NCBI RefSeq assembly: GCF_020386635.1 | Contig: NZ_CP081942.1 | Location: 3,720,001 to 3,784,000, forward strand | From: Pseudomonas sp. MM211 | GTDB taxonomy: Bacteria; Pseudomonadota; Gammaproteobacteria; Pseudomonadales; Pseudomonadaceae | Direction of reading: 5' to 3' | DNA: 64,000 nucleotides | Shown here: piece after piece, positions 13,396 to 34,856 of the stretch | Position numbering within the stretch: position 1 is the stretch's first letter | How the letters are laid out: each line of letters opens with the position of its first letter | Notes under the pieces: model-generated | Database searches by the model: none | Seen by the model: only the letters and a program-made list of their open reading frames with translations | What the model was told of the DNA's origin: nothing | Program-made: the position numbers and the translations under genes

Positions 13396-13419
13396 CAACT
13401 GTTTGCTAGGCAACAGTTG
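13396..13419. promoter_or_regulatory. Putative SfnR activating site upstream of msuD
   Basis: This is a near-perfect palindrome, CAACTGTT-N8-AACAGTTG. Its inner 18 bases CTGTTTGCTAGGCAACAG (13399-13416) match sites before three other operons in the window. The centre is 105 bp upstream of the -12 GC of the msuD sigma-54 promoter. Assignment to SfnR is inference from location and co-occurrence. Confidence 0.65.
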
Positions 13420-13498
13420 CGCAACACTACGCCCGGCAGAGCAACACCTCCTCCTTCATCAGCTGCCTCAAGGCCACATAATCCGTGGTCAATGCTGC

Positions 13499-13514
13499 TG
13501 GTACAGCTCTTGCT
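13499..13514 (+). promoter_or_regulatory. Sigma-54 promoter of msuDC-sfnR
   Basis: TGGTACA-N4-TTGCT has a perfect -12 element, exact GG-N10-GC spacing and two changes in the -24 element. The predicted start near 13525 leaves a leader of about 139 nt before msuD. Confidence 0.65.
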
Positions 13515-13663
13515 GTCTGCCTGTACCGCCCTGTTCACGGGGCTCAGTCACAGGACGCGTACATGATTGCTCACCGCACCAAATCTACGACCCACCGCAG
13601 GCCGTCAGCGCTCTCGATCCATGCTGGCCGGCAACAGGCCCGCAATGAGCGGGAGGCGTCTCG

Positions 13664-14821
13664 ATGAATGTTTTCTGGTTTCTACCGACCCATGGCGACG
13701 GCCACTTTCTCGGTACCAGTCAGGGCGCCCGCCCGGTAACCCTCAACTACCTCAAGCAGATCGCCCAGGCAGCCGACGGGCTGGGCTATTACGGCGTACT
13801 GATTCCAACCGGCCGTTCCTGCGAAGACTCGTGGGTAGTCGCCTCGGCCCTGGCGCCCATGACCGAGCGCCTGCGTTATCTGGTCGCCATCCGCCCCGGA
13901 ATCATTTCGCCAACCGTCTCGGCGCGCATGACCGCAACCCTGGATCGCCTGTCAGGCGGGCGCCTGCTGATCAATGTCGTTACCGGCGGCGACCCCGACG
14001 AGAATCGCGGCGACGGCATTCACCTGAGCCATGCCGAGCGCTACGAAGTCACCGACGAGTTCCTGCGTATCTGGCGTCGCGTGCTACAAGGGGAAGCCGT
14101 GGATTTCGACGGCAAACACCTCAAGGTCGATAACGCCAAAGCTCTCTATCCACCGCTGCAGCGCCCTTACCCGCCGCTGTACTTCGGCGGATCATCGGAG
14201 GCCGCCCACGAGCTTGCCGCCGAGCAGCTCGACGTCTACCTGACATGGGGCGAACCGCCAGCCGCAGTGGCCGAGAAAATCGCCGATGTTCGCGCCCGCG
14301 CCGCCAAACATGGGCGCACCCTGAAGTTCGGTATTCGCCTGCACGTAATCGTCCGGGAGACGGCGGAAGAAGCCTGGGCGGCTGCAGATCGCTTGATCGA
14401 GCACATCTCGGACGACACCATCGAGGCGGCGCAGAAGTCCTTCTCGCGCTTCGACTCCGAAGGCCAGCGACGCATGGCGGCCCTGCATGGTGGACGCCGC
14501 GACAGCCTGGAAATCGCCCCCAACCTCTGGGCTGGCGTCGGCCTGGTGCGTGGCGGTGCTGGCACTGCGTTGGTCGGTGACCCGCAGCAGGTGGCGGATC
14601 GCATCAAGGAGTACGCCGACCTGGGCATCGACAGCTTCATTTTCTCGGGCTACCCCCACCTCGAGGAAGCTTATCGCTTCGCCGAGCTGGTTTTCCCGCT
14701 TCTGCCCGAGCCCTATGCCAGCCTGGCCGGGCGTGGCATCACCAATCTCACGGGCCCATTCGGCGAAATGATCGCCAACGACGTGCTGCCCAGTACCCAG
14801 ACAGCGAGGACTTCCGCGTGA
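13664..14821 (+). CDS. msuD: FMNH2-dependent alkane/methanesulfonate monooxygenase
   Basis: This 385-residue LLM-class (luciferase-fold) enzyme cleaves the C-S bond of sulfonates with FMNH2 and O2, giving sulfite and an aldehyde. The SsuD/MsuD signature is full length: [17 protein letters not shown] at the start, [16 protein letters not shown] near 105-120, [14 protein letters not shown] near 175 and [20 protein letters not shown] near the end. I favour MsuD because the next genes are msuC and sfnR, the known methanesulfonate arrangement. It overlaps msuC by 4 nt. There is only one Cys. The partner reductase MsuE/SsuE is not encoded nearby. A GGGAGG ribosome site lies 8 nt upstream. Confidence 0.88.
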
Positions 14822-16005
14822 GCGCCCATCATAAAACTGCAGTTCTCAGCCCACTGCAAACCGCGCGAAAGCTGGCTGCCGGCTTTGCCGAAACCGCTGT
14901 CGAGCGCGATGAAGCAGGCGGAACGCCAAAGGCCGAGCGCGACGCCATTCGCCAGAGCGGCCTGCTCGCACTCAGCATCCCGACACAGTTCGGTGGCGTG
15001 GGCGCTAGCTGGGCCGAGACCCTGGGGGTGGTGCGTGAATTCGCCAAGGTCGACAGCTCCATCGCCCACGTATTCGGTTTCCAACACCTGATGCTGGCGA
15101 CCGTGCGGCTGTTCTCCCGGCCAGAACAGTGGCAGCCCTGGTACGAGCAGACCGCACGCAAGAACTGGTTCTGGGGCAACGCCCTGAACCCGCTGGACAC
15201 CCGAACCATCGTCAAGAAATTCGATGGCTGGCGCGAGTTCTCCGGCAAGAAGAGCTTCTGCTCGGGCGCCACCGACTCGGAGATGCTGATCGCCTCGGCC
15301 GTTGACGAAAGTGCCGGGGGCAAGCTGCTGATTGCCGCAATCCCCAGCGGTCGTACTGGAATCACCCTGCATGATGACTGGAACAACATGGGCCAGCGAC
15401 AGACCGACAGCGGCAGCGCGACCTTCGAGCGGGTGCGTGTCGAGGAAGAAGAGCTGCTGCTCGATCCGGGACCGCTGAGTACGCCGTTTGCCTGCCTCAG
15501 GCCGCTGATCGCGCAGTTGCACTTCTCCCACATCTTTCTCGGCATCGCCGAAGGCGCCCTGGAAGACGCACGTCACTACACGCTCAAGGAGGGCCGACCC
15601 TGGTTCAAATCCAAGGCCCAGCACACCAGTGAAGATCCCTACATCCTGCGCCACTACGGCGAGTTCTGGGTCGGCCTGGAAGGCGTGCGCCTGCTGGTCG
15701 AGCGCGCCGCCGCGCAGCTCGATGAGGCCTGGAGCAAGGAACATGCGCTAAGCGCAGAAGAGCGTGCACAACTGGCCATCTCCATCTCCACCGCCAAGGT
15801 GGCAGCCAGCCGTACCGGCCTGGATATCTGCAATCGGCTTTTCGAGGTCACGGGTGCTCGCGCGACTCATGCCTCACTACGTCTTGATCGGCACTGGCGC
15901 AACCTGCGCACGCAAACCCTGCACGACCCCGTGGACTACAAGATCCAGGAACTGGGCGACTGGGCTCTCAACCAGACGCGCCCCACCCCAACCTTCTACT
16001 CATAG
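14818..16005 (+). CDS. msuC: Methanesulfinate monooxygenase-like flavoenzyme (acyl-CoA dehydrogenase fold)
   Basis: This 395-residue protein of the acyl-CoA dehydrogenase superfamily belongs to the sulfur-acquisition branch (MsuC, SfnB, DszC). In that branch the enzyme acts as an FMNH2-dependent monooxygenase rather than a dehydrogenase. In this context it would convert methanesulfinate to methanesulfonate for MsuD. Family markers include [50 protein letters not shown] and the C-terminal [21 protein letters not shown]. The catalytic glutamate of true acyl-CoA dehydrogenases is not apparent. It is coupled to msuD by a 4-nt overlap and is followed 8 nt later by sfnR. Confidence 0.85.
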
Positions 16006-16013
16006 GGATACCC

Positions 16014-17114
<1,101 letters not shown>

Positions 17115-17244
17115 CAGCTGATGACCATGCGACCTCAGCATCGTGGATGAGCTGGCGCCCTGCCCCTCTGCTGTAACGCGCATGAGCTCTAACCTCATGC
17201 AAAAGACAGGACTAGCAGGGCGGCGAATTACGCAGCCCTACTTC

Positions 17245-18873: not shown

Positions 18874-18998
18874 GTACCCACCCCCGGCCAGTCAGAAATG
18901 AAGCATCGCGTATGCCTTTCCATTTCTATCGGCAAAGGGGAATAAATATGAAGCCTTTGGCCATCACATCTGCAAGCGATCAGATCGGCTCTGCGGCT

Positions 18999-19019
18999 GG
19001 GCTGCCGGCAAGCCAGCCC
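18999..19019 (-). terminator. Weak stem-loop after ssuB
   Basis: Arms GGGCTG and CAGCCC with a 9-base loop lie 47 bp past the ssuB stop on the minus strand. There is no T-run. Confidence 0.35.
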
Positions 19020-19065
19020 TATTCAAAACACAGCTGCCGACGCGCCGCAGACTTCGAACGGGCTC

Positions 19066-19785
19066 TTAGATCGCATGGGCCAGGTGCAGCTCGGTCAGCG
19101 CTTCGGCTTTCAGCCGTGACAGCTCGCCATCGCGGCGGTCACGGGGGCGCGGCAGGTTGACGATAAGCTCCTGGCGAATGCCGCTGGGGCGGTTGCCCAT
19201 CACCAGCACCCGGTCACTGAGATACAGCGCCTCGTCTACGTCGTGGGTCACCACCAACAAGGCGATGGCATGGTGCTCGGCCAGCTCGAGCAGCAGATCC
19301 TGCAGTTTCATGCGGGTGAAGGCATCCACTGCGCTGAAGGGCTCGTCGAGCAGCAGCACCCGTGGCCGTGAGTAGAGTCCGCGCGCCAGGGCCACGCGCT
19401 GCGCCATGCCGCCGGAGAGCTCCTTGGGCAGCGCGCTGGCGAAGCCATCGAGGCCCACTTCGGCAATCAATTGCGCCACTCGCTCACGGTCGTAGTTACG
19501 GTCGTCGGCAAAGCCGATGTTCTGCTCCACCGTGAGCCAAGGCATCAGCCGCGGCTCCTGGAACACGAAAGAGACGTCGCCGCCCTGTTCACCGAGCTGC
19601 ACGCGGCCACTGAACTCACGCTCCAGCCCTGCGACGATGCGCAGCAAGGTGCTCTTGCCGCAGCCACTGGGGCCCAGCAGGCTGACGATTTCCCGCTCGC
19701 CCAGGGACAGGCCGACGTTCTGCAGCACGGTCACGCCCGCGAAGCTCTTGCGCTCCACGCGGATATCCAGCAATGGCGCTGCCAT
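19066..19785 (-). CDS. ssuB: Sulfonate-type ABC transporter ATP-binding protein
   Basis: This 239-residue ATPase energises the adjacent SsuC-like permease at the inner membrane. It has Walker A GPSGCGKST, signature LSGGMAQRVALARGL, Walker B VLLLDEP and the H-loop VTHDVDEA, in the nitrate/sulfonate/taurine importer style. The start ATG at 19785 was chosen because AAGGAGG precedes it; the open frame upstream belongs to the permease region. It follows the permease stop by 1 bp, so the two are translationally linked. Exact substrate is inferred from neighbourhood. Confidence 0.85.
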   Translation of the reverse strand: MAAPLLDIRVERKSFAGVTVLQNVGLSLGEREIVSLLGPSGCGKSTLLRIVAGLEREFSGRVQLGEQGGDVSFVFQEPRLMPWLTVEQNIGFADDRNYDRERVAQLIAEVGLDGFASALPKELSGGMAQRVALARGLYSRPRVLLLDEPFSAVDAFTRMKLQDLLLELAEHHAIALLVVTHDVDEALYLSDRVLVMGNRPSGIRQELIVNLPRPRDRRDGELSRLKAEALTELHLAHAI

Positions 19786-19786
19786 C

Positions 19787-20620
19787 TCAAACCTCCTTGC
19801 CAGTGAATGCGTCTCGCCAGCCCAGCAGGCGCTGCTCCAGCTTGGCCAGCAGGCCGTCGCTAAGCTTGCCGAGCAACGCCAGGACGATAATCGAGGCCAG
19901 GACGATATCCGGCCGCGAGGTTTCCCGGCCATCGGTGAGCAGGTAACCGAGCCCCTTGGTCGCTGCGATCAGTTCGGCAGCGACCAGGAACATCCAGGCC
20001 AGGCTGAGGCCACTGCGCAAGCCGGTCATCAGCCCAGGCAACGCCGCTGGCAAAAGAATACGCGCGACCAGACGACGCGAGCTGAAACCATACATCTGCC
20101 CCACCTCGACCAGCTTGCGATCGATGTTGCGGATGGCCGCGACACCGTTGACGTAAACCGGGAAGAACGCGCCGATGGCGATCAGAACCACTTTGGAGGT
20201 CTCGTCGATGCCCAGCCAGAGCAACAGCAGCGGTACCCAGGCCAGACTGGGAATCGCCCGCAGCCCGGCGAAGGTGGGCTCCAGATAGGCTTCCGCCTCA
20301 CGGCTCAGGCCCACCCAGGCGGCCACCAGCAGGGCCAGCCCGGCGCCGATGGCGAAACCGGCGAATACCCGCGCCAGGCTGGCGCCGATATGCCCCCACA
20401 GCGGCCCTTCGGCCAGCTCGTGCAGGGTCAGCACGATCTCGCTGGGGGCCGGCATCTGATAGGACGGAATCCAGCCGATGCGCACCACGATTTCCAGAAA
20501 CACGATCAGCAGCAGCGGGATGACCAATCCCTTGGCGCGCCGACGCCAGGCACTGGCATCGAACCCCGGTTTCCATGGGGAACTGCGCAAAGCCGGCAGC
20601 GACTTGCTCTTGATTGTCAT
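19787..20620 (-). CDS. ssuC: Sulfonate-type ABC transporter permease
   Basis: This inner-membrane permease of about 277 residues has roughly six hydrophobic segments and the BPD_transp_1 EAA loop (MYGFSSRRLVARILLPAALPGLMTGLRSGLSLAWM). SsuC-type ends include TKGLGYLLTDGRETSRPDIVLASII. The start at 20620 (MTIKSKSL) has a GGAG box; an earlier ATG at 20692 would run into the intercistronic hairpin. It pairs with the ATPase and binding protein on either side. Confidence 0.85.
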   Translation of the reverse strand: MTIKSKSLPALRSSPWKPGFDASAWRRRAKGLVIPLLLIVFLEIVVRIGWIPSYQMPAPSEIVLTLHELAEGPLWGHIGASLARVFAGFAIGAGLALLVAAWVGLSREAEAYLEPTFAGLRAIPSLAWVPLLLLWLGIDETSKVVLIAIGAFFPVYVNGVAAIRNIDRKLVEVGQMYGFSSRRLVARILLPAALPGLMTGLRSGLSLAWMFLVAAELIAATKGLGYLLTDGRETSRPDIVLASIIVLALLGKLSDGLLAKLEQRLLGWRDAFTGKEV

Positions 20621-20651
20621 GAAAGACTCCGATTGTTGAAGCGACATGAAC

Positions 20652-20686
20652 ACAGCGCTGCCGCAGCGAACGGCGGCAAGCGCTGT
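20652..20686 (-). other. Intercistronic stem-loop between ssuA and ssuC
   Basis: A 13-bp stem (ACAGCGCTGCCGC against GCGGCA plus GCGCTGT, one bulged A) lies in the 75-bp gap. Such stems often protect the binding-protein part of ABC operon transcripts, giving more binding protein than permease. Function inferred. Confidence 0.5.
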
Positions 20687-20695
20687 ACGCACGCC

Positions 20696-21685
20696 TTATT
20701 TGGCGGCGATGGCCTGCTTGCCGAACGCCGGCTCGATGAGTGCGTCCACCACGGCATTCACGTCAGTGCCACGGCGCACCAGTTGCTCTTCGAGCAGGAT
20801 GGGTGCGGCAGCCTTCAGCGCTGCGACATGCTCAGGGCCGGGCTGGGCGTTGCTGAAATCGGTGCGCTGCAGTTGCAGCTTGGCCACTTCCAGCGGCAGC
20901 TTGGCTTCTTCGGAAAGAATCTTGGCGAGCTCCTCAGGGTTGGCGCGGGCCCACTCACGGGCCTTTTCGTAGGCGGCCAGCACCTTGTCGATCGCCTCCG
21001 GGTGCTCCTTGGCGAATTTCTCGGTGACGCTCACCACGCCGTAGCTGTTGAAGTCGAGATTGCGATAGAGAATGCGCGAGCCAGCCTGCAACTGGCTGGC
21101 GGCGAGCAGTGGGTCGAGGCCGGCCCAGGCATCGACGTCACCCTTCTCCAGGGCAGTGCGACCGTCCGGGTGCTGCAGATGCACCAGCTCCACGTCGTTC
21201 TTGTCGAGGCCGACGGTGGCCAGGCTGCGCAGGGTGAACAGGAACGGATCGGTGCCTTTGGTGGCAGCGATCTTCTTGCCTTTCAGATCCTCCAGGGTCT
21301 TGATCGGCGAGCCCTTGCCGACCACCAGCGCGGTCCATTCCGGGCGACTGGCGACGTAAACGGTCTTGATCGGGCTGCCATTGGCACGGCTCAGCACTGC
21401 GGCCAATCCTGCGGTGGAACCAAAATCCACACCGCCGCTGTTCAGGTATTCCAGGGAACGGTTGCTACCCTGGCTGAACACCCAGCTCACCTTGGTATCC
21501 GCGCCTACACTCTCCTCCAGCCAGCCAAAGCGCTTGAGCACCAGGCTGGTCGGTGAGTAATAGGCGTAGTCGAGCTTCAACTCCTTGGGCAGCTCGGCCG
21601 CCTGCAGCGAGGCAGACAGAGTCAAGGCGGTAGCAGCTAGGGTCAGCAGCCGTACGAACGAATTGGCGACACGGGATTGGTGCAT
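20696..21685 (-). CDS. ssuA: Aliphatic sulfonate-type periplasmic binding protein
   Basis: This 329-residue secreted protein of the SsuA/NMT1-like family binds sulfonates for the adjoining permease and ATPase. It has a signal peptide at 1-27 (cleavage after LQAA) and motifs YAYYSPTSLVLKRFGWLEE, GKKIAATKGTDPFLFTLRSL and DVDAWAGLDPLLAA typical of SsuA. Read through, it has no Cys and no Met after the initiator, an extreme sulfur-free composition that fits production under sulfur starvation. The start at 21685 has a CAGGAG box. First gene of the ssuACB-like operon. Confidence 0.88.
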   Translation of the reverse strand: MHQSRVANSFVRLLTLAATALTLSASLQAAELPKELKLDYAYYSPTSLVLKRFGWLEESVGADTKVSWVFSQGSNRSLEYLNSGGVDFGSTAGLAAVLSRANGSPIKTVYVASRPEWTALVVGKGSPIKTLEDLKGKKIAATKGTDPFLFTLRSLATVGLDKNDVELVHLQHPDGRTALEKGDVDAWAGLDPLLAASQLQAGSRILYRNLDFNSYGVVSVTEKFAKEHPEAIDKVLAAYEKAREWARANPEELAKILSEEAKLPLEVAKLQLQRTDFSNAQPGPEHVAALKAAAPILLEEQLVRRGTDVNAVVDALIEPAFGKQAIAAK

Positions 21686-21765
21686 GGAATGCTCCTGACA
21701 GGGAATGACGCGGCGTTGTCGATCTGGCATGACACCCAGATCGACTCCGCGATTACCTGTGGCTT

Positions 21766-21781
21766 TGCAGCACTCATGCCA
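21766..21781 (-). promoter_or_regulatory. Sigma-54 promoter of the ssuACB-like operon
   Basis: On the minus strand it reads TGGCATG-N4-CTGCA: a -24 element matching TGGCAYG, one mismatch in the -12 element, and exact spacing. The predicted start is near 21755, giving a leader of about 70 nt. Confidence 0.65.
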
Positions 21782-21848: not shown

Positions 21849-21872
21849 CCGCTGTTGCTGGGCAAACAGTTG
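21849..21872. promoter_or_regulatory. Putative SfnR activating site upstream of ssuA
   Basis: The minus strand reads CTGTTTGCCCAGCAACAG over 21852-21869, 15 of 18 identical to the msuD site. Its centre is 93 bp upstream of the -12 GC. It lies in the divergent region shared with the hypothetical gene at 21980. Confidence 0.65.
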
Positions 21873-22444: not shown

Positions 22445-22939
22445 TCATTCGGCTGCGCCGTTAGATGCACTGCGGTGCAGGATGACGGTATCGATCCCCT
22501 CTTCCACCGAAGGCACTTCCAGCATTGCAAAAACGCTGCGCAGCGCATGCTCCGGCACCATCGTGTCCGCGGTCCTCGCGGCGTTGCGTGATAGTGCCTC
22601 ATCCAGGCTTGCCTGCACGAACACCGCCGTTACCGGTACGTCATGAGCTCGGGCCAGTGTCAGCAGGCGTTCGCGATGACGGCGTGCCGGCAGCGCCGCG
22701 TCGAAGATCACTGCGTGCTCCTGCAGGCCAGCGGCATGGCGGGCGATCCAGCTCGACTTGCCTGCACCTTGCACGCCCATGACCAGATAGAGCCTGCTCG
22801 CCTGCGCTAGCAGCACGTCCACAGCGGCATAGGCTTGCTCCCATGCCTGGTGACTGCGCTCGGCGGTGAATACCCGACCGGCTGGCGTTTCCAGGTAGTC
22901 GTCAGGATTGACGATGCGCCCCGCCAGCACCGACTGCAT
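22445..22939 (-). CDS. P-loop kinase-like ATP-binding protein
   Basis: This 164-residue protein has a Walker A motif GVQGAGKSS near 54-62 and a zeta-toxin/AAA_33-like layout (VIFDAALPARRHRERLLTLA then VTAVFVQASLDEAL). Small P-loop proteins of this kind phosphorylate small molecules or nucleotides; the substrate is unknown. It overlaps the aldo/keto reductase stop by one base and is the last gene of the operon starting at 26821. A lone zeta toxin is unlikely because no antitoxin gene is adjacent. Confidence 0.75.
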   Translation of the reverse strand: MQSVLAGRIVNPDDYLETPAGRVFTAERSHQAWEQAYAAVDVLLAQASRLYLVMGVQGAGKSSWIARHAAGLQEHAVIFDAALPARRHRERLLTLARAHDVPVTAVFVQASLDEALSRNAARTADTMVPEHALRSVFAMLEVPSVEEGIDTVILHRSASNGAAE

Positions 22940-23949: not shown

Positions 23950-24418
23950 CTGATTCTCCTGTCGGCCCAGGCCGACTCAATACAGCCTCACGAACACGCT
24001 CGATCACTGGCTCGAACGACTCGTGGAAGCCTACGGCTGGCAACTCGAGCGGCTGCCAGAAACATTCGAAACATAAGCCATCCTCGGCTTCGCTGCCCGA
24101 GGCGTCATGCGTCCACGCGGGCGGTAAACCCGACACTGGCAACAGAAACAGGTGCCAGCGCTGGATCTGCACGTCCCCGGGCGCACCGTGGCGCTCTTGC
24201 TTGAGTACCGCGAGAGCCTGCACGTCACCGCTAAAGACGACACCGGTTTCCTCGAACAACTCGCGAACGACTGCCTGCTCGGGAAGTTCGCCCGGCTCCA
24301 CCGTGCCCTTGGGTACCTGATTACCGGCCAACGGATGCCGGAAACACAGCAGGCTGCCTTCCTGGATGACACACGCGACCGCCTTCAAGACTTCACGCAT
24401 CACTACGTATCCCATCAA
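23939..24418 (-). CDS. NUDIX hydrolase
   Basis: This 159-residue protein has a canonical NUDIX box, GTVEPGELPEQAVVRELFEETGV (G-x5-E-x7-REL-x2-EE-x-G), near residues 38-60. Such enzymes hydrolyse nucleoside diphosphates linked to another moiety; the substrate cannot be read from the motif. The start codon at 24418 overlaps the stop of the ABC exporter gene by 4 nt. Confidence 0.88.
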   Translation of the reverse strand: MMGYVVMREVLKAVACVIQEGSLLCFRHPLAGNQVPKGTVEPGELPEQAVVRELFEETGVVFSGDVQALAVLKQERHGAPGDVQIQRWHLFLLPVSGLPPAWTHDASGSEAEDGLCFECFWQPLELPAVGFHESFEPVIERVREAVLSRPGPTGESDES

Positions 24419-26247: not shown

Positions 26248-26275
26248 GGCGTACGAATCCTTGCGGCAGGTAGGG

Positions 26276-26821
26276 TTACGCCGGAGTGGCAAGTTGCAGA
26301 TTGAAGCGGGTAAGCGGCAGTGGTTCGCCGTTCTCCTCGAAGGTGCGGTGGCTGGCGGTATCGGCGATGAAGCCGGCGCTACGGTAGAAGCCGGCACCAC
26401 GCTGGTTGCCGTCCAGTACCCAGGCGGTAACGGCACGGTAGCCGGCGTCTTGCATTGCCTGCCGGGCCGCCACCCAGAGGTGTGAGCCGATGCCCTGCCC
26501 CCAGGCCTCAGGCAGCAGGTAGATGGCCATCAGCTCGCCGGTCGCAGGGGCGGCGCCCTCATCACGGCTGTCGCCAAACGAGCACCAGCCCAGTACACGC
26601 CCCTCGGCTTCGGCGACTCGGATCACCGGCTCCCCTGCGGCGATGGCCTTGTCGAACCAGGCCACACGACGCTCCAGGCTATCGTTCAATGCGGCAAGAT
26701 AAGCAGCTGACAGCAGGTCACGGTAGGTCACTTGCCAACTGCGGATATGCAGTTGCGCGATAGCCCGTGCATCTTCAGCCTGCGGTGGACGAATCAGCAC
26801 ACTGGCTGCAATCCAGGTCAT
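26276..26821 (-). CDS. GNAT-family N-acetyltransferase
   Basis: This 181-residue protein has the GNAT acetyl-CoA-binding pattern: IYLLPEAWGQGIGSHLW (V/I-x-x-x-x-Q/R-x-x-G-x-G/A) followed by AWVLDGNQRGAGFYRSAGF. It probably acetylates a small amine. GGGAGG lies 10 nt upstream of the ATG. It is the first gene of the GNAT-exporter-NUDIX-reductase-kinase operon and has a strong sigma-54 promoter 61 bp upstream. Substrate unknown. Confidence 0.85.
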   Translation of the reverse strand: MTWIAASVLIRPPQAEDARAIAQLHIRSWQVTYRDLLSAAYLAALNDSLERRVAWFDKAIAAGEPVIRVAEAEGRVLGWCSFGDSRDEGAAPATGELMAIYLLPEAWGQGIGSHLWVAARQAMQDAGYRAVTAWVLDGNQRGAGFYRSAGFIADTASHRTFEENGEPLPLTRFNLQLATPA

Positions 26822-26897: not shown

Positions 26898-26981
26898 ACG
26901 GCACAATTCTCATAAATTCATGTGGTTAGGAGTAGACAGCGACAGTTGGAGAATGCCCCTTGGGGCAAACTGCTGGAACGC

Positions 26982-26999
26982 TGTCTGCCCGGTAACAGC
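26982..26999. promoter_or_regulatory. Putative SfnR activating site before the GNAT operon
   Basis: CTGTCTGCCCGGTAACAG on the plus strand matches the msuD site at 14 of 18 positions and keeps both CTGT and AACAG arms. Its centre is 107 bp upstream of the -12 GC. It sits immediately behind the MFS stop codon. Confidence 0.6.
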
Positions 27000-27005
27000 A
27001 GCCGC

Positions 27006-28391
27006 TCAACCAGTGACCGAGCTGCCTGCCTTTTGTGCCAGGCGACGAAACAGCAACCAGGATGACGCACATAGCAATCCGCACAGCAACATGGTCAGGC
27101 TCAGGTCGGAAGCGTGAATCTCGGAATGGCCGCGAAGATTCATGATCGCGCTCAGTACGACCGCTGCCAGCCCTATCGCCAGGCTCATGCTCAGTTGCAT
27201 GGACATCGCCGACAGACTGCTGGCGCGACTTGCCAGCTCCACGGGCACGTCGGAAAAGGTCAATGCCCCCAGGGTACTGAACTGCAGCGAACGAATGACG
27301 CCGCCAACGAACAGCAAGACCACGATCAACCAGTACGGCGTCTGCGCATCGAAGACCGCACACAGCGCGATGGAGCCCCCCGCCAACAAGGAGTTGCCCA
27401 GCAAGGTGCGGCGAAAGCCGAAGCGTTTGACGATGCGCACCGAAAGAAACTTGATGGTCAGCGCGCCGGCGCCACCGGCCAGTGTCAGCAGGCCGGCTAC
27501 CAGTGGGCTGAGGCCAAAGCCGACCTGGAAAAGCAGCACCAGCAGAAACGGCTGTGAAGCACTGCCGAGACGAAACAGGTTGCCGGCCCAGATGGCCGTA
27601 GCGAACGTCGGCACCTGCAACAGCCGCAGATCGATCAATGGCTGCGGTGCATGCCGCGCATGGCGCACATAGAGGGTCGCACTGCTCACCCCCAGCAACA
27701 GCAATGCAATGACCCAGGGCGTAGGCAGCAAGCCGTGGCCAATGGCTTCGAAGGTGAATACCAGGCTGGCTAGGCCGAGGCCACTGAGCACGAAACCCAG
27801 TCCATCGAGCTTCGCCTGCGGCTGCGCCGGGTATTCCGGCACATGGCGGCGGATCATCAGGATACCCAGCACGCCGATGGGCACATTGATCAGAAAGATC
27901 CATTGCCACGACAACAGGGTAACCAGCAGCCCACCCAGCGGCGGGCCAAGCACCGGGCCGAGCAATGCCGGGATGGAAAGAAAGGCCATGGCTTGCAGCA
28001 AATGCTCGCGGCGCGCCCAGCGCAGCAGGATCACCTGCCCGACCGGAACCATCATCGCCCCGCTGGCCCCCTGCAACAGCCGCGACAGAGACAGCTGCAG
28101 CAATGAACCGGAGGCCGCGCAGGCCAGCGAACTGAGCATGAACAGCAGGATGGCCGCGATGAACACCCGCCGCGGCCCGAAACGATCCGCCGCCCAACCG
28201 CTAACCGGCACGAACAGCGCCACGGCAAGCAGATACAGCGACACCACCAGGTTCATGCGCACCGTTGGCTCGCCGAAGTCTGCCGCCATCTGTGGTAGCG
28301 CCGTCAGCACCGCCGTCGCGTCGAGCAGCTCCATGAACAGTGCGCAGCCGATGATGATCGGTACCGTGCGGGAAAACGACTCACTCGCCAT
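27006..28391 (-). CDS. MFS transporter, DHA2 (EmrB/QacA) type
   Basis: This inner-membrane drug/proton antiporter-like protein has 461 residues and about 13-14 hydrophobic segments. Motif A variant (GWAADRFGPRRVFIAA) follows the second helix and motif C-like (LGPVLGPPLGGLLV) lies in the fifth, which marks export-type MFS. The ATG at 28391 shares its base with the preceding GNAT stop, so the two are coupled. Cargo unknown. Confidence 0.9.
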   Translation of the reverse strand: MASESFSRTVPIIIGCALFMELLDATAVLTALPQMAADFGEPTVRMNLVVSLYLLAVALFVPVSGWAADRFGPRRVFIAAILLFMLSSLACAASGSLLQLSLSRLLQGASGAMMVPVGQVILLRWARREHLLQAMAFLSIPALLGPVLGPPLGGLLVTLLSWQWIFLINVPIGVLGILMIRRHVPEYPAQPQAKLDGLGFVLSGLGLASLVFTFEAIGHGLLPTPWVIALLLLGVSSATLYVRHARHAPQPLIDLRLLQVPTFATAIWAGNLFRLGSASQPFLLVLLFQVGFGLSPLVAGLLTLAGGAGALTIKFLSVRIVKRFGFRRTLLGNSLLAGGSIALCAVFDAQTPYWLIVVLLFVGGVIRSLQFSTLGALTFSDVPVELASRASSLSAMSMQLSMSLAIGLAAVVLSAIMNLRGHSEIHASDLSLTMLLCGLLCASSWLLFRRLAQKAGSSVTG

Positions 28392-28921
28392 CAGGTAAGC
28401 GCCGTGCCGGACAGATCCTTGTGCAACAGATGCACGCTGGGTTCATCCTCCCGCGGCCCCAGATCCTGCCAGCCGTGTCGCTGGTAGAAACGCCATTCGG
28501 GCCGGTTCGTCGGATGAGCGCTGAGACGCACCGCCGAGCACCCCAGGCCGGCGAAAAACTGCATGGCGTAGGCCTGCAGTTCATCACCGAGCCGGTTGCC
28601 ACGCCACTGCGGCAGCAGGTAGAACAGGCTCACGTACCCCAGCGCTGGCGGGTGTTGCGACAGGATGCTCATCTGGATCTGCCCGACTATTCGGCCATCC
28701 AGCCAGGCATGCATCGCTGAACCTGGCAGGCTCTCCTGGCGCTGTCTCAATCGCGCCAGGTAGCGCGTAGCGCCTTGGCCATCAGCCCCATGGAAGCTAT
28801 CGGTGGAGCCGAAGCTGCCCTGTATGGCGTCCTCACAAAAGCGCACGCAGATATCGGCATGGCGCTCGAGGTCGATCGAACACAAGGTCAACTGGGGGCG
28901 ATCAGAACGCATTTCACTCAT
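28391..28921 (-). CDS. GNAT-family N-acetyltransferase
   Basis: This acetyltransferase of about 176 residues has the acetyl-CoA-binding loop in FYLLPQWRGNRLGDELQ and the C-terminal NRPEWRFYQRHGWQ typical of GNAT enzymes. Start at 28921 (MSEMRSD) overlaps the end of the HIT gene by 8 nt; an ATG at 28912 is also possible. It probably forms a small operon with HIT and MFS. It is not closely similar to the other GNAT protein at 26.3 kb. Confidence 0.82.
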   Translation of the reverse strand: MSEMRSDRPQLTLCSIDLERHADICVRFCEDAIQGSFGSTDSFHGADGQGATRYLARLRQRQESLPGSAMHAWLDGRIVGQIQMSILSQHPPALGYVSLFYLLPQWRGNRLGDELQAYAMQFFAGLGCSAVRLSAHPTNRPEWRFYQRHGWQDLGPREDEPSVHLLHKDLSGTALT

Positions 28922-29393
28922 ACTTTGTCTGATAGGCCAGATCGATATCCCGTGCGAGTGCCACGTATTCGGAATCCTGCAGGCGCACATCGGGCATTTC
29001 TGTGCGGCGGCTCATCCAGATGGGGTGTCCCCAGCGCGGGTCATTTTTGTACCGTGGAACGATATGAAAATGCAGATGAGGAACGCTGTTGCCCAGACTT
29101 TCTAGGTTCATGTGATCAGGACTGACCACTTGCCTGACGGCCGCTTCGGCCCGGCGCAGATCATCGGCGAAGAGCCGCCACTGGTCACTGTCGAGCTGCC
29201 CTGGGTGTACCGCATGCCCGAGGTCGTAGATCAGTGCACAGGTGCCTCGATAAGCCTGATTGGCGCTGAGGTAAAGCGACGATACGGACAGCGTCGTGAC
29301 AAAGTGCAGGAGCTGCGTGTACTTCGCCCTTGGCGCGCAGAGTGGGCAGCCTTTGCCATGCAGCAATTCATCCCAGGCTGGTAGCTCAGTCAC
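28914..29393 (-). CDS. HIT-family nucleotide hydrolase/transferase
   Basis: This 159-residue histidine-triad protein has the motif HLHFHIVP (H-x-H-x-H) near residue 104. HIT proteins hydrolyse or transfer nucleotidyl groups. A CPLC pair near residues 16-19 may bind zinc. It follows the module A ABC genes after 93 bp and is coupled to the GNAT gene. Confidence 0.88.
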   Translation of the reverse strand: MTELPAWDELLHGKGCPLCAPRAKYTQLLHFVTTLSVSSLYLSANQAYRGTCALIYDLGHAVHPGQLDSDQWRLFADDLRRAEAAVRQVVSPDHMNLESLGNSVPHLHFHIVPRYKNDPRWGHPIWMSRRTEMPDVRLQDSEYVALARDIDLAYQTKYE

Positions 29394-29486
29394 ACGCCCT
29401 CCCTGAAACGATTAGAGGGACGAATGCACGAGCCGCGCGCTTGCGGCCTCGCACGAATGCAAGCAAGCACGCGTCGTCCATGCCAT

Positions 29487-31191
29487 TCATACGGCAATTC
29501 GCCACAGCCGCGCCTCGTCGAACAGCAGTGCCGGGCTTTCCGGCTCTGCGGACGGAACGATCAGGTCGACGCCCGCACCCGGCAACCGCGGCACGGCACC
29601 CAACAGGCGCTGGGTATAGGCTTGCTGCGGGGCAAGAAACACCGATTCGACCGGGCCATGTTCGATGGCGCGCCCCTGGTGCATGACCAGTACTTCATCG
29701 CTGACGTGGCGGATCACCCCGAGGTCATGGGAGATGAACAGGTACGCCAGGCCCAGTTCAGCCTGCAGATCCGCCAGCAGATCGAGCACCTGGGCCTGCA
29801 CCGAGACATCCAGCGCCGAGACCGGCTCATCACAGATGATCAGCTGCGGCTCGCTGGCGATGGCTCGCGCGATGGCCACCCGCTGGCGTTGCCCACCTGA
29901 CAACAGCAGCGGCCGGCGAGCGGCGATATCGGCCGGCAAACGCACCTTGTCCAGCAGCTCACTGACGCGTTCCTGGCGATCCGCTGCCGGAACACCCGCT
30001 ACCTCCAGTGCGTCAGCCAGAATCTGCCCGACGCTCCAGCGCGGATCGAACGAGCTGAGTGGGTCCTGATAGATCACGCTGATCGCACGGCGGTATGGGC
30101 GCCGGGACTTCTCCTCGACGCCGACGCCGTTCCAGAGCTGGCCGAGAAAACGAACCTCACCCTGATCGGCGGGCAGCAAGCCTAGCGCCATGCGCGCCAC
30201 GGTGGTTTTCCCCGAACCGGATTCACCGACGATGCCCAGCGTCTGTCCCGCACGCAGCTCGAAGGACACCTCGTCGACGACCTGACGGCTCTGCCCGTCC
30301 GGCCCCTGATAACGCTTGCCGAGGCCATGTGCCGCCAGCAACACCGGCGTATCCGAGTTTGCACGGAGAACAGGGACCGGCCTTGCCACGCCCTGGCGAT
30401 AGTCTCGTACCGCGTGGATGCTCGGTCGGTACGGCATCGAGCAGCGAGCGGGTATACGGATGCTGCGGGTTCTGCAGCACTTGCTGCATGGCCCCCTGCT
30501 CCACCACTTCACCCTGCCTGAGCACCACGACTTCATCAGCGAGCTGCGCCACGACCGCGAGGTCGTGACTGATGATCAGCAGGGAATCACCCCGTGCCTT
30601 GATCTCCTGCAACACGCCAAGGATCTGCGCCTGCACGGTGGCATCCAGCGCGGTGGTCGGCTCATCGGCGATGATCAGCCCTGGCGTCAGCGCCAGTGCG
30701 CTGGCGATCAATGCGCGTTGACGCAACCCGCCGGAGAGCTGATCCGGGCGCTGCCGGGCACGCAACTCGGGCTCGGGCACGCCGACCGTGTCCAGCAGTT
30801 CCAGTACCCGCGCGGAACGCTCATGGCGCGTGCCCCAACCGTGGGTTTGCAGCACTTCGAGAATTTCCTTGCCCACAGGCCGGAGCGGATCCAGTGACAC
30901 CAGGGCATCCTGCAACACGAAGCCGATCTCCTTGCCGCGCAATCGGCGCCATTGCCGCTCGGACAGGGTCAACAGATCATGCCCCGCGTAGCTCAGACGA
31001 CGGGCGCTGACCTGCGCGCCACTGCCGGCAAGGCCCACCAGGCTGCGCGCAGTGACGCTCTTGCCGGAACCGGACTCGCCCACCAGGGCGATGGCCTTGC
31101 CCGGCTCAAGGGTGAACGAAAGGTCGCGGATCACCTGGCGATCCGCGAAGGTGATGGACAATCCTTCGACGATCAGACTGCGCTCACTCAT
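29487..31191 (-). pseudogene. Fused DppDF-type peptide ABC ATPase, frameshifted (module A)
   Basis: Two overlapping frames encode what is one 550-residue, two-ATPase protein in the paralogue at 40234-41892. The first frame (31191 to 30223) carries Walker [10 protein letters not shown], signature [15 protein letters not shown] and reads correctly to about PTEHPRG; beyond about 30400 it turns into unrelated sequence. The second frame (open from 30536, with an ATG at 30437) carries GESGSGKTT and [13 protein letters not shown] to the stop at 29487. The needed shift is one surplus base between roughly 30360 and 30420. No ribosome site precedes the second frame. It is either a sequencing error or a broken gene. 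Confidence 0.8.
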
Positions 31192-32054
31192 GACAGGCGT
31201 CCCTCTAGTCGCTGCTGCAGATAACGCCCGACGACGGTGGTGGACAGCGTGGTCAGGACGATGAAAGCCCCCGGAAAGAAGGTCAGCCACCAGGCGTTGG
31301 CGATGAAGTCCCGGCCCATGGACAGCATGGTGCCCCACTCGGGCGCAGGCGGTGGCGCGCCCATGCCCAGAAAGCTGAGTGCCGACGCCCAGACGATCGC
31401 CTGACCAATGCCCATGGTCACGGTGACCAGCAACGGGCGCATGGCATTGGGCAGCAGTTGCCGCAGGATGATGCGCCGCGGCGAGTGGCCCAGCGCCCGC
31501 GCGGCCTCGATATAACCCGAGCCTTTGACGGCGAGCACCTGGCCGCGAACCATCCGCGCATAGCCGGGTGCCGCGCCGAGCCCAGTGGCCACGATCAGCG
31601 GAATCAGCCCGGTGCCGAAAATGGCCACGAACAGCAGTGCCAGCACCAGCGAAGGGAACGCGAAGAGGATCTCCAGCAGCCAGCCCACTGCGCGATCCGT
31701 GCGCCCGCCGGCGAGCCCGCCCAGCAAACCAAGGTAGATGGCGATGGACATGGCCAGAAAGGTCGCGGCCAGGCCAATGGTCAGTGACTGTCCGGCGCCA
31801 TGAATCACCCGCGAGTAGATGTCCCGCCCGGATTGATCGGTGCCGAACCAGTGCGCCCAGCCTGGCGCCTGGAATGCGTCGCGCGGCGCGATGCTCAGCG
31901 GATCGGTATGGCTGAACAGTTGAGGCAGCAGTGCCGCGATGATCAACAGCAGCAGAAACATTGCGGCCAGCAACGCCGCCCAGGGCAGTTTGTGGCGGCG
32001 TAGTCGCACAGGCGTTGGAAGCAGCACTTGGGTATTGAGCATCAACTCACTCAT
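31188..32054 (-). CDS. Peptide-type ABC permease DppC (module A)
   Basis: This inner-membrane permease of 288 residues has five to six helices and the family motif ARALGHSPRRIILRQLLPNAMRPLLVT (EAA loop). The N-terminal OppC_N segment is seen in LPWAALLAAMFLLLLIIAAL. ATGA overlaps join it to DppB upstream and the ATPase downstream. Similar to the DppC copy in module B. Confidence 0.9.
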   Translation of the reverse strand: MSELMLNTQVLLPTPVRLRRHKLPWAALLAAMFLLLLIIAALLPQLFSHTDPLSIAPRDAFQAPGWAHWFGTDQSGRDIYSRVIHGAGQSLTIGLAATFLAMSIAIYLGLLGGLAGGRTDRAVGWLLEILFAFPSLVLALLFVAIFGTGLIPLIVATGLGAAPGYARMVRGQVLAVKGSGYIEAARALGHSPRRIILRQLLPNAMRPLLVTVTMGIGQAIVWASALSFLGMGAPPPAPEWGTMLSMGRDFIANAWWLTFFPGAFIVLTTLSTTVVGRYLQQRLEGRLS

Positions 32055-33037
32055 ACGGTCGCCTCCTGGCGTGGGTCGACCCACTGATAGAGCGCATCGA
32101 CCACCACGTTGATCAATACGTAGCCGGCAGCGACCACCAGGCTGATGCCGATGGCCAGCGGCAGATCCTGGGCCTGCACCGCCTGGTACAACTGACGCCC
32201 CAGGCCGCGCCGGGAGAAAATCACCTCCACCACCACCGCCCCGCTGATCAGCGAACCAATGGCCCAGCCGGAGAGGGAAATACCCGGCAGCAAGGCATGC
32301 CGAAGCGCATGGCGAAAGCGCACGGCGATATCACTCAAACCTCTCGTACGGGCAGTCAGCACAAAAGGCTGCTCGAGCGTCAGTTCCAGGGACTCACGGG
32401 TGACCTGGGCGATGAAACCGGCCAGGGGAATGGCCAGTGCCAGGGATGGCAGGATCAGCGTGCGCCAGCCGTCGCTGCCAGCCGGTGGAAACCAGCGCAG
32501 GCCAAAGGCGAACACCGCCAGCAGCAGAATCGCCAGCCAGAAGTGGGGAATCGAAGCGGCCAGGGTCTCGAGCATGGAAGCCAGGCCGCCCACCCAGTGC
32601 CTGCGCCCGGCGGTCAGCACCGTAAGCAGCAGCACCAGCAGCCAGGCCAGCAATAGCGAGAACAGCGTCAGCTCCAGGGTTGGCCAGAACTGCTCGGCCA
32701 GCACTCGGGTAACCGGCAGGTGCTGCGAGTAGGACGAGCCCAGATCGCCCTGTACCAGCTTCCCCAGGTACAGCCCGTATTGCACTGGCAATGGCTTGTC
32801 GAGGCCGTACTCGCGGGTGGCCTCGGCGATGGTCTCGGGGGTCGGATTGCCGCTCGGCCCACCGAGGATCGCCAGCACGGGATCGCCTGGCATCAAGCGC
32901 ATCACGAAGAAGATCAACGTGGCAATCGCCCAGAGAACGAACGCGCCGCCCAACAGCCGATGAAAAAATCGCCTGGCCAAGGCGACCCGACGCTGACGAC
33001 GAGGATCGGGCGTGAATGCTGCAACGGAATCGCTCAT
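32051..33037 (-). CDS. Peptide-type ABC permease DppB (module A)
   Basis: This 328-residue permease has six predicted membrane helices and DppB hallmarks: FVMRLMPGDPVLAILGG near the start, EYGLDKPLPVQYGLYLGKL, and the EAA loop RTRGLSDIAVRFRHALRHALLPG. Start at 33037 overlaps the binding-protein stop by 4 nt (ATGA); a start four codons earlier is possible. It is a clear relative of the module B permease at 46616. Confidence 0.9.
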   Translation of the reverse strand: MSDSVAAFTPDPRRQRRVALARRFFHRLLGGAFVLWAIATLIFFVMRLMPGDPVLAILGGPSGNPTPETIAEATREYGLDKPLPVQYGLYLGKLVQGDLGSSYSQHLPVTRVLAEQFWPTLELTLFSLLLAWLLVLLLTVLTAGRRHWVGGLASMLETLAASIPHFWLAILLLAVFAFGLRWFPPAGSDGWRTLILPSLALAIPLAGFIAQVTRESLELTLEQPFVLTARTRGLSDIAVRFRHALRHALLPGISLSGWAIGSLISGAVVVEVIFSRRGLGRQLYQAVQAQDLPLAIGISLVVAAGYVLINVVVDALYQWVDPRQEATV

Positions 33038-34719
33038 TTGTTCACCCATGCGTCGTACAGATATGGAACGGCCAGCGATGGCTCCAGGTGCACGCCCTGA
33101 GTGGTCTTGTAGATGCCCAGCCGCGTGCTTTGCGGGTAAGTGGTCAGCTGCAGGTACTGGCGCGAGATGATTTCCTGGGCCTGGTAATAGAGGCGCGCAC
33201 GGACGTCGGCGTCCTGAGTCGCCAGCGCGGCTTTCATTACCGAGTCAAAGTCCGGGTCGGCGAAGCCAGCGGTGTTCTGGTGATAGCCACCAACCCCTGC
33301 GGGCTGGACGAACTCGGAGCCGAACACGATGCGCAGCACGTCAGCCGTGTTGGTGTTCCAATAGCCAATGCGAATGTCGTACTCCCAGTCCGCCTGGCGC
33401 TTGGTCGCCTGCACGTCGCTCATCTGTTCTAGCTGCACATCGATTCCCACCTGCCGGGCAGTCGCCTGCACCTGCTCCCAGAGGGTCAGCTCCGACGGCG
33501 CCGTACGGCTACCGATCACCACGTTGACATGCAAGCGCTTGCCATCCCGGGTTCGGTAGCCCTGCTCGTCACGCTGCATCCAGCCAGCTTCGTCGAGCAG
33601 TTCGGCGGCGCGCTTCGGGTCGTACGCCTGGGCGGCTTCGAAATCGCCGCTGTAGAACCGGGTCGCCGAGCTGAGCGGCCCGCCCGAACGCGGAAACTCG
33701 CCGAAGTACACGCTTTTCAGCGCACCCTCGACGTCGGCACTGCGCACGAAGGCTTCGCGCACGCGCACGTCGTCGAACGGCGCACGAGTGATGTTCAAGG
33801 TGCCATTGGTGGGGTTGCCCGGGCGCTGGGCGATGATCAGTTGCAGATCGGGGTTGCGCCGTGCCGCTTCGTGGGATTCCGGCGGTAGCGTCTCGATGAC
33901 GTCGACCTCACCCGCCTGCAGCGACGCGAAACGAACCGAGGGCTCCTGAATGAATTTCCACTGAATGCGTTCCAGGTAGGCCGGCCCCTGATGCCATGCG
34001 GTAGGTGGCGCCGAGTTATAGCCGCTGTTGCGCTCGAGCAGAACCTGGTTCTGCCGCTCCCAGCGCACCACCTTGAAAGGCCCGCTGCCCACCGGGCTCT
34101 GGCAATTTTCATCGCGGCTGCGTCGCAGCGCCGCCGGCGACTGAATGCCCAGGAAGCCCTGGGCCAGCACCTCGAGGAATGCCGCATAGGGCGCATTCAA
34201 ACGTACTGCCGCGGTGTACTCGTCAATGATGTCGGTAGCCACATATTGGCGAATGTAGCCACCGGCCGTGCTCGACTGGGTCTTGGGGTTGACGATGTGT
34301 TCGAGGTTGGCCTTGAGTGCCTGCGCGTTGAATGGCGTGCCATCGGTGAAGCGCACATCGTCGCGCAAATGGAAGGTGTAGGTTTTGCCGTCCTCCGACA
34401 CGTCCCAGGACTTGGCCAGCCAGGGGCCGATCTCGCCTTTCTCGTTCATCGACACCAGCGAATCGAGAAACTGCCTGGCGACGAACAGTTGCGGCATATC
34501 TCCAGCCACATGCGGATCGAGACACGTCGGCTCGCGATCAGTGGCGTAGATCAAGGTGCCGCCGCTCACGGGCTTGTCACTGCGCGCCTGGGTCGCCACC
34601 TCTGCCCCGCAGCCGGCAAGAAGAATGGCACACAGCGCAGTGGCGCCGAGCGAACGAACCGGTCGGCCGCCTGGGAGGCTTTGCCGGGCGAATGGCTTGA
34701 AATGGGTATAGATAGGCAT
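33034..34719 (-). CDS. Family-5 solute-binding lipoprotein (module A)
   Basis: This 561-residue DppA/OppA-type periplasmic binding protein has lipobox LAGC at about residue 37, so it is likely anchored to the inner membrane. The SBP_bac_5 pattern is complete: YATDREPTCLDPHVAGD, PWLAKSWDVSEDGKTYTFHLRDDVRFTDGTPFNAQ, and the C-terminal IRIGYWNTNTADVLRIVFGSEF. The family binds peptides, opines or other large solutes. In this context an organosulfur ligand is likely but not shown. It is the head of the module A operon with its own sigma-54 promoter. Confidence 0.9.
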   Translation of the reverse strand: MPIYTHFKPFARQSLPGGRPVRSLGATALCAILLAGCGAEVATQARSDKPVSGGTLIYATDREPTCLDPHVAGDMPQLFVARQFLDSLVSMNEKGEIGPWLAKSWDVSEDGKTYTFHLRDDVRFTDGTPFNAQALKANLEHIVNPKTQSSTAGGYIRQYVATDIIDEYTAAVRLNAPYAAFLEVLAQGFLGIQSPAALRRSRDENCQSPVGSGPFKVVRWERQNQVLLERNSGYNSAPPTAWHQGPAYLERIQWKFIQEPSVRFASLQAGEVDVIETLPPESHEAARRNPDLQLIIAQRPGNPTNGTLNITRAPFDDVRVREAFVRSADVEGALKSVYFGEFPRSGGPLSSATRFYSGDFEAAQAYDPKRAAELLDEAGWMQRDEQGYRTRDGKRLHVNVVIGSRTAPSELTLWEQVQATARQVGIDVQLEQMSDVQATKRQADWEYDIRIGYWNTNTADVLRIVFGSEFVQPAGVGGYHQNTAGFADPDFDSVMKAALATQDADVRARLYYQAQEIISRQYLQLTTYPQSTRLGIYKTTQGVHLEPSLAVPYLYDAWVNK

Positions 34720-34751
34720 GTCATGCTCATTGCGAATGTCGAAGCGTCTGT

Positions 34752-34767
34752 TGCACCCTGCGTGCCA
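34752..34767 (-). promoter_or_regulatory. Sigma-54 promoter of module A importer
   Basis: The minus strand reads TGGCACG-N4-GTGCA: perfect -24, one mismatch at -12. The predicted start near 34742 gives a short leader of about 22 nt. Confidence 0.72.
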
Positions 34768-34838
34768 GGCCAGAAACCCAGTGAAACCGGGCTTCGGGCG
34801 AGCGAACTGAGGTCATCAGGAAACAAACTGTGCAGGTG

Positions 34839-34856
34839 CTGTTGGCAGGCAGACAG
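34839..34856. promoter_or_regulatory. Putative SfnR activating site before module A
   Basis: The minus strand reads CTGTCTGCCTGCCAACAG, 15 of 18 identical to the site before the GNAT operon. Its centre is 94 bp upstream of the -12 GC, nearly the same spacing as at ssuA. It lies between the TonB receptor stop and the importer. Confidence 0.62.

What the first reader, a model, noticed from the sequence alone, without database searches (positions are those of the whole stretch)
13396..34856. Shared 18-bp dyad before four sigma-54 promoters: a candidate SfnR regulon with a readable binding site
Seen: msuD CTGTTTGCTAGGCAACAG (13399-13416), ssuA CTGTTTGCCCAGCAACAG (minus, 21852-21869), GNAT operon CTGTCTGCCCGGTAACAG (26982-26999), module A binding protein CTGTCTGCCTGCCAACAG (minus, 34839-34856). 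The consensus is CTGTYTGC-N5-AACAG. Each lies 93-107 bp upstream of a GG-N10-GC promoter element. Known: SfnR is a sigma-54 activator of organosulfur genes in Pseudomonas and is encoded at 16014-17114. Inference: this dyad is the SfnR site, and it links sulfonate oxidation, sulfonate import, peptide-type import and an unassigned exporter operon into one circuit with positive feedback on sfnR.
Basis: partly seen in the sequence, partly recalled or inferred. Interest (0 to 1): 0.9.

Follow-up and report, generated by a model that had tools for sequence, protein, structure and literature searches.

The report
SfnR enhancer sites in organosulfur island
Four clear copies (and a weaker fifth) of one short DNA switch sit in front of sulfur-scavenging gene sets in this Pseudomonas, and the same switch sits in front of matching genes in many relatives, so it is very probably where the known sulfur-starvation activator SfnR binds.

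Summary
Observation confirmed with small corrections. Four 18-bp dyads lie upstream of GG-N10-GC sigma-54 elements (site 3 is 26981-26998). Dyad plus sigma-54 occurs 4 times in the 5.28-Mb genome, all in the window; reversed control 0. A stricter pattern hits 60 of 149 genus genomes, control 0, and tracks SfnR: 58 of 60 with it have SfnR, 38 of 89 without. In relatives it precedes msuE, ssuA, sfnFG, sfnG and sfnB-type genes. 25 of 26 module-A binding-protein loci carry it. A fifth, weaker site (51686-51703) precedes a TonB-receptor operon. That SfnR binds it is inferred: no footprint was run, and the four papers most likely to show the site were not held. Best reading: a known activator, a readable two-part operator, and a larger regulon that includes paired DszC-like and DmoA/CmoJ-like desulfurisation modules with their transporters. 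New members of a known kind.

The parts
13399..13416 (+). Operator site 1, CTGTTTGCTAGGCAACAG, 82 bp before sigma-54
   Evidence: orthologous sites before msuE/msuD in named relatives
13499..13514 (+). Sigma-54 element TGGTACAGCTCTTGCT of the msuDC-sfnR operon
13664..14821 (+). msuD, FMNH2-dependent alkanesulfonate monooxygenase
   Evidence: NCBIfam TIGR03565, 647 bits, cut-off 518
14818..16005 (+). msuC-like flavin monooxygenase (DszC/SfnB-related, below the equivalog cut-offs)
   Evidence: name msuC recalled from the operon order
16014..17114 (+). sfnR, sigma-54 activator, 366 aa, AAA+ domain at 24-187, no N-terminal sensor domain found, C-terminal helix-turn-helix-like segment
   Evidence: Pfam PF00158; 98% to P. 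flavescens LMG 18387 and 81-87% to most other Pseudomonas loci; HTH alignment; Pfam HTH_8 not reported at E 1e-3
21852..21869 (-). Operator site 2, CTGTTTGCCCAGCAACAG, 70 bp before sigma-54
   Evidence: sites before ssuA in 8 other genomes
21766..21781 (-). Sigma-54 element TGGCATGAGTGCTGCA of ssuA
19066..21730 (-). ssuA-ssuC-ssuB sulfonate ABC importer
   Evidence: TIGR01728 SsuA family above cut-off; SsuC- and SsuB-like by best matches
26981..26998 (-). Operator site 3, CTGTTACCGGGCAGACAG in promoter orientation, 83 bp before sigma-54
   Evidence: one-mismatch counterpart before the same gene in genome G054, L218
26882..26897 (-). Sigma-54 element TGGCACGGGCTGTGCT of the GNAT-exporter operon
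22445..26821 (-). GNAT acetyltransferase, ABC exporter-type protein, aldo-keto reductase, small kinase-like protein; 465 bp separate exporter and reductase, so one or two transcripts
34839..34856 (-). Operator site 4, CTGTCTGCCTGCCAACAG, 71 bp before sigma-54
   Evidence: conserved in 25 of 26 binding-protein loci, own included
34752..34767 (-). Sigma-54 element TGGCACGCAGGGTGCA of module A
29487..34719 (-). Module A: SBP_bac_5 binding protein, two permeases, two ATPases
27006..28990 (-). Second GNAT protein and an MFS transporter, 496 bp after module A; membership in its transcript not shown
51686..51703 (-). Operator site 5 (weaker), CTGTATGTGGCGAAACAG, one mismatch, 82 bp before sigma-54
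   Evidence: exact-dyad counterpart CTGTTCGCCGAAAAACAG, gap 84, before the 79%-identical receptor in G054 (L218)
51588..51603 (-). Sigma-54 element TGGAACGGCCTTTGCT of the TonB-receptor operon
37567..51522 (-). Module B: TonB receptor, binding protein, permease, SfnB-like flavoprotein, CmoJ/DszA-like monooxygenase, aldo-keto reductase, permease, ATPase, DmoA/LadA-like monooxygenase, SfnB-like flavoprotein; overlapping or at most 71 bp apart (start of the reductase assumed)
54206..54223 (-). Weak sixth candidate, ATGTACTTGACCGGACAG, two mismatches, gap 82 to sigma-54 at 54108-54123
   Evidence: at two mismatches 0.67 hits per window are expected by chance

Best explanation
Each site is an upstream activator (enhancer) sequence for SfnR, the bacterial enhancer-binding protein encoded in the same cluster. 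SfnR binds the CTGTT-N8-AACAG dyad through its C-terminal helix-turn-helix; a second, degenerate half-site 8 bp further on probably takes a further dimer, as expected of an activator that works as an AAA+ hexamer. From there it loops to sigma-54 RNA polymerase at GG-N10-GC about 70 or 83 bp downstream and opens the promoter during sulfate starvation. Because sfnR is the third gene behind site 1, it feeds back on itself. The regulon here covers sulfonate oxidation (msuDC), sulfonate import (ssuACB), an outer-membrane receptor with two Opp-type importers, two pairs of SfnB/DszC-like and DmoA/CmoJ/DszA-like flavin monooxygenases, and an export/acetylation set. Shown: sequence, position, conservation, co-occurrence with SfnR. 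Inferred: binding, starvation control, loop, feedback, substrates.
For: Joint pattern 4 against 0 in own genome. Strict pattern in 60 of 149 genus genomes, reversed control 0 in each of the 149 rows; 58 of the 60 have an SfnR match, 38 of the other 89 do (Fisher p 8e-13, uncorrected for relatedness). In 80 SfnR loci, dyad (up to 1 mismatch) plus sigma-54: 166 hits against 3 on reversed sequence (overlapping dyads counted more than once); with exact dyads 45 of 60 hits fall at 82-86 bp within a 20-199 bp search range. Operon site upstream of sfnR in 45 of 69 Pseudomonas-type loci, control 0. Sites before sfnFG with divergent sfnA-type genes in L042, L060, L064, L066, L075, L086 and L089, not all on both sides at the thresholds used. 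Module A: 25 of 26 loci, control 0 of 26. Of 20 other strict sites that I chose, 15 precede ssuA (8), sfnG (3), sfnB-like (2), TonB-SBP_B (1) or msuD-like (1) genes. HTH segment nearly invariant in the 12 Pseudomonas SfnR rows aligned, different in the own-genome paralogue.
Against: No binding or expression data for this genome. The genome has other sigma-54 activators (19 rows, two of them adjacent pieces), including a 52% SfnR-like paralogue, so SfnR is inferred. 38 of 96 SfnR genomes lack the strict pattern. 24 of 69 Pseudomonas-type loci lack the operon site; 3 of these have near forms and 21 showed no sigma-54 element by my regular expression either. 0 of 11 SfnR-like loci outside that group pass. 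In G035 the strict pattern occurs without SfnR and was not examined; in G058 the sfnR gene is broken (L224). 5 of the 20 chosen remote sites precede genes not obviously of sulfur metabolism. Site 5 is one mismatch, and TonB receptors in several relatives (second receptor in L210; L207, L208, L222) show no site of their own.
Confidence: 0.87

Rival explanations
1. The dyad is read by another sigma-54 activator, for example an SfnR paralogue of the 52-63% class, alone or as well as SfnR.
For: A 52% paralogue exists 41 kb left of the window, and several genus genomes carry 59-63% relatives.
Against: The paralogue's own neighbourhood shows no such site, its helix-turn-helix differs, and the operator tracks genomes with SfnR and sits upstream of sfnR operons. 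Many genomes with the operator list only the 80% or better SfnR at E 1e-90.
Confidence: 0.08
2. The dyad is the binding site of a different class of regulator, such as a repressor of these sulfur promoters, that happens to lie upstream of sigma-54 elements.
For: Palindromes of this size suit many dimeric regulators; Pseudomonas sulfur genes are also under CysB (recalled; title of Endoh 2003 and Kouzuma 2008 seen in reference lists).
Against: The fixed spacing to sigma-54, far upstream, in two classes of about one helical turn, is that of an enhancer. Loci without the site mostly lack the sigma-54 element too.
Confidence: 0.04
3. Chance similarity or descent from duplicated promoters without present function.
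For: The dyad alone is only weakly enriched in the genome: 27 rows at one mismatch against 10 for the control.
Against: Joint pattern 4 against 0; conserved at orthologous genes of 74-79% protein identity with otherwise diverged upstream DNA.
Confidence: 0.01

Closest known systems
SfnR of Pseudomonas putida DS1 and its sfnFG/sfnAB targets (Endoh 2003, 2005; Habe 2007; Kouzuma 2008; titles seen in reference lists only, the papers were not held)
   Same: Sigma-54 activator in the msu/sfn cluster; target sfnFG carries the same operator in named relatives.
   Different: Whether the published site equals this operator could not be read; the module A, module B and exporter genes as targets come from this work and I saw no statement of them in the passages read.
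SfnR1/SfnR2 of P. aeruginosa with msuEDC and sfnG (Lundgren 2019, not held; PMC12581299 passage)
   Same: Sulfur-starved PAO1 raises SfnG, SfnR1, MsuCDE and SsuBDE proteins (passage of PMC12581299).
   Different: The window has msuD-msuC-sfnR without msuE in front, and a much larger set of flanking sites.
NtrC-type enhancers for sigma-54 promoters in general
   Same: Dyad about 70-90 bp upstream of GG-N10-GC, paired sites (recalled general knowledge).
   Different: Own consensus and regulon.
S-alkyl-cysteine salvage by CmoO/CmoJ (PMC10863075, abstract and passages) and the DszC/DszA sulfone route
   Same: A sulfoxidising flavoenzyme paired with an NtaA/DmoA-family C-S cleaving one, beside an acetyltransferase; LLM2 is close to YtnJ, LLM1 to DmoA and LadA, SfnBa to DszC.
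   Different: The deacetylase step was not sought, substrates are unknown, and YtnJ equals CmoJ by recall only.

Membership tests
SfnR | AAA+ sigma-54 activation domain | tested here: met
   PF00158, E 2e-70, residues 24-187; GAFTGA present in the translation (the motif's meaning is recalled)
SfnR | Close sequence relation to SfnR of other Pseudomonas | tested here: met
   79-98% over about the full length to most Pseudomonas loci, 83% to P. putida NBRC 14671; the DS1 protein itself was not compared
SfnR | Gene linked to msu/sfn genes | tested here: met
   msuD-msuC-sfnR
SfnR | C-terminal Fis-type helix-turn-helix | tested here: inconclusive
   Aligned segment looks like one and is conserved, but Pfam HTH_8 was not reported
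SfnR regulon | Sigma-54 element and fixed-distance operator before each member | tested here: met
   4 exact, 1 with one mismatch
SfnR regulon | Same operator before published targets | tested here: met
   sfnFG and sfnG in named relatives; target status from titles only
SfnR regulon | SfnR binding in vitro | not testable with these tools
   needs footprint or gel shift
SfnR regulon | Loss of expression without sfnR or rpoN | not testable with these tools
   needs mutants
S-alkyl-cysteine salvage (CmoO/CmoJ) | CmoJ-type monooxygenase with acetyltransferase nearby | tested here: inconclusive
   LLM2 to YtnJ E 4.5e-95 but nitrilotriacetate monooxygenase 3sdo scores as well; GNAT1 matches phosphinothricin-type acetyltransferases

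The most novel reading that the evidence does not exclude
One two-part operator grammar (dyad, half-site 8 bp on, sigma-54 at 70 or 83 bp) lets the whole organosulfur economy of a Pseudomonas be read from sequence, and it places a so far unassigned thioether or S-conjugate scavenging island (TonB receptor, two Opp-type importers, two DszC-like plus DmoA/CmoJ-like enzyme pairs, acetyltransferases, an exporter) under one self-amplifying SfnR switch; in some genomes even sugar-type ABC importers carry it, hinting at sulfonated sugars as sulfur sources.
Probability: 0.45. Interest if true: 0.65.

Novelty: new member of a known kind. Interest (0 to 1): 0.52.

Why it matters
An operator that can be read turns gene lists of unknown transporters and monooxygenases into testable sulfur-scavenging sets. 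It predicts which genes rise with SfnR in soil and plant Pseudomonas, and it points to substrates (thioethers, S-conjugates, perhaps sulfonated sugars) that nobody would guess from 'peptide transporter' labels.

Tried and rejected
Rejected as a site: the fifth exact 18-mer of the genome. Rejected: reading module A as a peptide importer on family name alone; it matches nickel, glutathione and dipeptide binding proteins about equally.

Led nowhere: a first loose genus scan hit 128 of 149 genomes, but many listed matches look like coding sequence and several control columns are not zero, so I did not count on it and used the stricter pattern. That pattern misses site 3 by construction. Sigma-54 element at 37157-37172 before a split TonB receptor has no dyad. 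The eLife HT-SELEX and ChIP papers (PMC8041468, PMC13086498) hold no mention of PA2354, PA2359 or sulfur in the main text. Literature on the operator: searches, 72 of an open-licence library; I saw passages, not whole papers. No claim is made that the site is unpublished.

Biases: the 20 regions were chosen partly because sfnR, module A and exporter lay near each other; the 20 were chosen from the listed matches, leaving out most msu-operon sites; family names rest on 10 representatives of 95 downstream ORFs, 8 with a hit. SfnR presence means E at most 1e-90 and so counts some fragments and some 60% relatives. The Fisher test ignores shared descent.
Full report
1. The observation. The four dyads are there and each has a GG-N10-GC element downstream in the right orientation. 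Site 3 is 26981-26998. Distances are 89-102 bp from first dyad base to GG, in two classes that differ by about one helical turn (dyad end to element 70 and 71, or 82 and 83). The dyad alone is weakly specific (27 rows at one mismatch against 10 for the reversed control); the dyad with sigma-54 is specific (4 against 0 in 5.28 Mb; mean 0 in 60 simulated windows).

2. Aligning three promoter groups from relatives (45 msu-operon, 24 module-A and 16 other sfn-type sites) gives CTGTT-N8-AACAG, and then, 8 bp after the dyad, a conserved ACA, usually as CAACAA or ACAnnTTG. The window sites have RCA at that place (ACA in sites 1 and 4, GCA in sites 2, 3 and 5). A fifth site, CTGTATGTGGCGAAACAG at 51686-51703 (minus), stands 82 bp before TGGAACGGCCTTTGCT and heads a run of ten genes, TonB receptor to SfnB-like flavoprotein. 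Its counterpart in genome G054 has an exact dyad, gap 84 (L218). A sixth candidate (54206-54223) has two mismatches and may be chance.

3. Who reads it. sfnR (16014-17114) is a sigma-54 activator, 98% to a P. flavescens protein and 79% or more to most Pseudomonas loci found (the list is the best 80 of 591). Around those 80 loci the dyad plus sigma-54 occurs 166 times against 3 on reversed sequence (up to one dyad mismatch, overlapping dyads included). With exact dyads, 45 of 60 hits fall at 82-86 bp although 20-199 bp were searched. Ten representatives of 95 downstream ORFs were named: MsuE (2), SfnB family (3, one below its cut-off), SfnG (2), SsuA (1), two without a family at E 1e-70. In L042, L060, L064, L066, L075, L086 and L089 an sfnF-like and sfnG pair lies divergent to an sfnA-type gene with operators between them; sfnFG is a published SfnR target by title, and sfnA one of a sigma-54 activator by title.

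4. Genus test. The strict pattern is in 60 of 149 genomes, reversed control 0. SfnR at E 1e-90 is in 96 of 149. Both 58, pattern only 2, SfnR only 38, neither 51. Of the two exceptions, G058 has a broken sfnR (L224) and G035 was not examined. The 38 genomes with SfnR but without the strict pattern are against a simple rule; the strict pattern misses variants (it misses site 3 here), and 21 of 69 Pseudomonas-type SfnR loci have neither site nor sigma-54 element upstream of sfnR by my search. Outside that group 0 of 11 loci pass.

5. New members. Module A: in 25 of 26 loci (own included) from 298 genus genomes the binding-protein gene has the dyad (10 exact, 15 with one mismatch) and a sigma-54 element (up to 3 mismatches) at gap 69-72, once 81; reversed control 0 of 26; G277 has none. 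Exporter: 27 loci, of which only the window and G054 (one mismatch) show a site of their own; in 7 of 20 fetched regions it lies downstream of module A in the same direction (L207, L208, L209, L216, L217, L222, L223), in two upstream (L211, L220). sfnR lies in the same region as module A in 10 of 16 regions with module A, but these were partly chosen for that. TonB receptors: sites before receptors in L210 (first one), L212, L214, L217, L218, L221 and L238; none of their own before those in L207, L208, L222 and the second in L210. Of 20 remote strict sites that I picked, 15 precede ssuA, sfnG, sfnB-like, TonB-SBP_B or msuD-like genes; the others precede three sugar-type binding proteins, one AMP-binding enzyme and one ABC permease.

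6. How it works. Most likely SfnR, made at a basal level under CysB (recalled), binds the two-part operator, touches sigma-54 polymerase by looping and opens five promoters during sulfate starvation; its own operon is one of them. The island then takes up organosulfur compounds and cleaves C-S bonds. Modules A and B pair SfnB/DszC-like with DmoA/LadA-like or CmoJ/DszA-like enzymes, which resembles sulfoxidation followed by C-S cleavage as in the CmoO/CmoJ salvage route (PMC10863075, abstract and passages). Substrates are inference.

7. Verdict. The regulator and part of its regulon are known; the operator may be too, in papers I could not open. The readable operator, the spacing rule and the extended, conserved regulon are the gain. 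Sulfur-starved P. aeruginosa raises SfnG, SfnR1, MsuCDE and SsuBDE (passage of PMC12581299), which fits.

Noticed in passing
window 34889-37086 and 51937-54107 (minus): Two TonB-receptor genes are each split into two overlapping ORFs (plug plus part of barrel, then the rest); broken genes or assembly errors. Only described.
   Followed up: no
L153 (own genome 3,670,000-3,688,000): A 52% SfnR-like activator lies between four luciferase-type monooxygenase genes in a row and an NMT1/ABC importer set; no dyad with sigma-54 seen there. Probably a second sulfur cluster.
   Followed up: partly
window 54304-62249 (minus): Gamma-glutamyltranspeptidase, ABC permease, BAAT/thioesterase-like protein, NMT1-type binding protein, AMP-binding ligase and glyoxalase-like protein follow the island; perhaps conjugate processing.
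   Followed up: no
   Followed up: partly
window 13141-13330: Strikingly AT-rich stretch just upstream of site 1; a place where a CysB/sigma-70 promoter could lie. Not scanned.
   Followed up: no
L031 (P. flavescens LMG 18387): 98% sfnR, same msuD-msuC-sfnR and ssu order, but no exporter hit between the kinase-like and GNAT genes in the stretch held.
   Followed up: partly
L224 (genome G058): msu promoter with exact dyad kept while sfnR is in two pieces; a recent loss of the activator.
   Followed up: partly
window 37157-37172 (minus): Good sigma-54 element before a split TonB receptor without any dyad; another activator may serve it.
   Followed up: no
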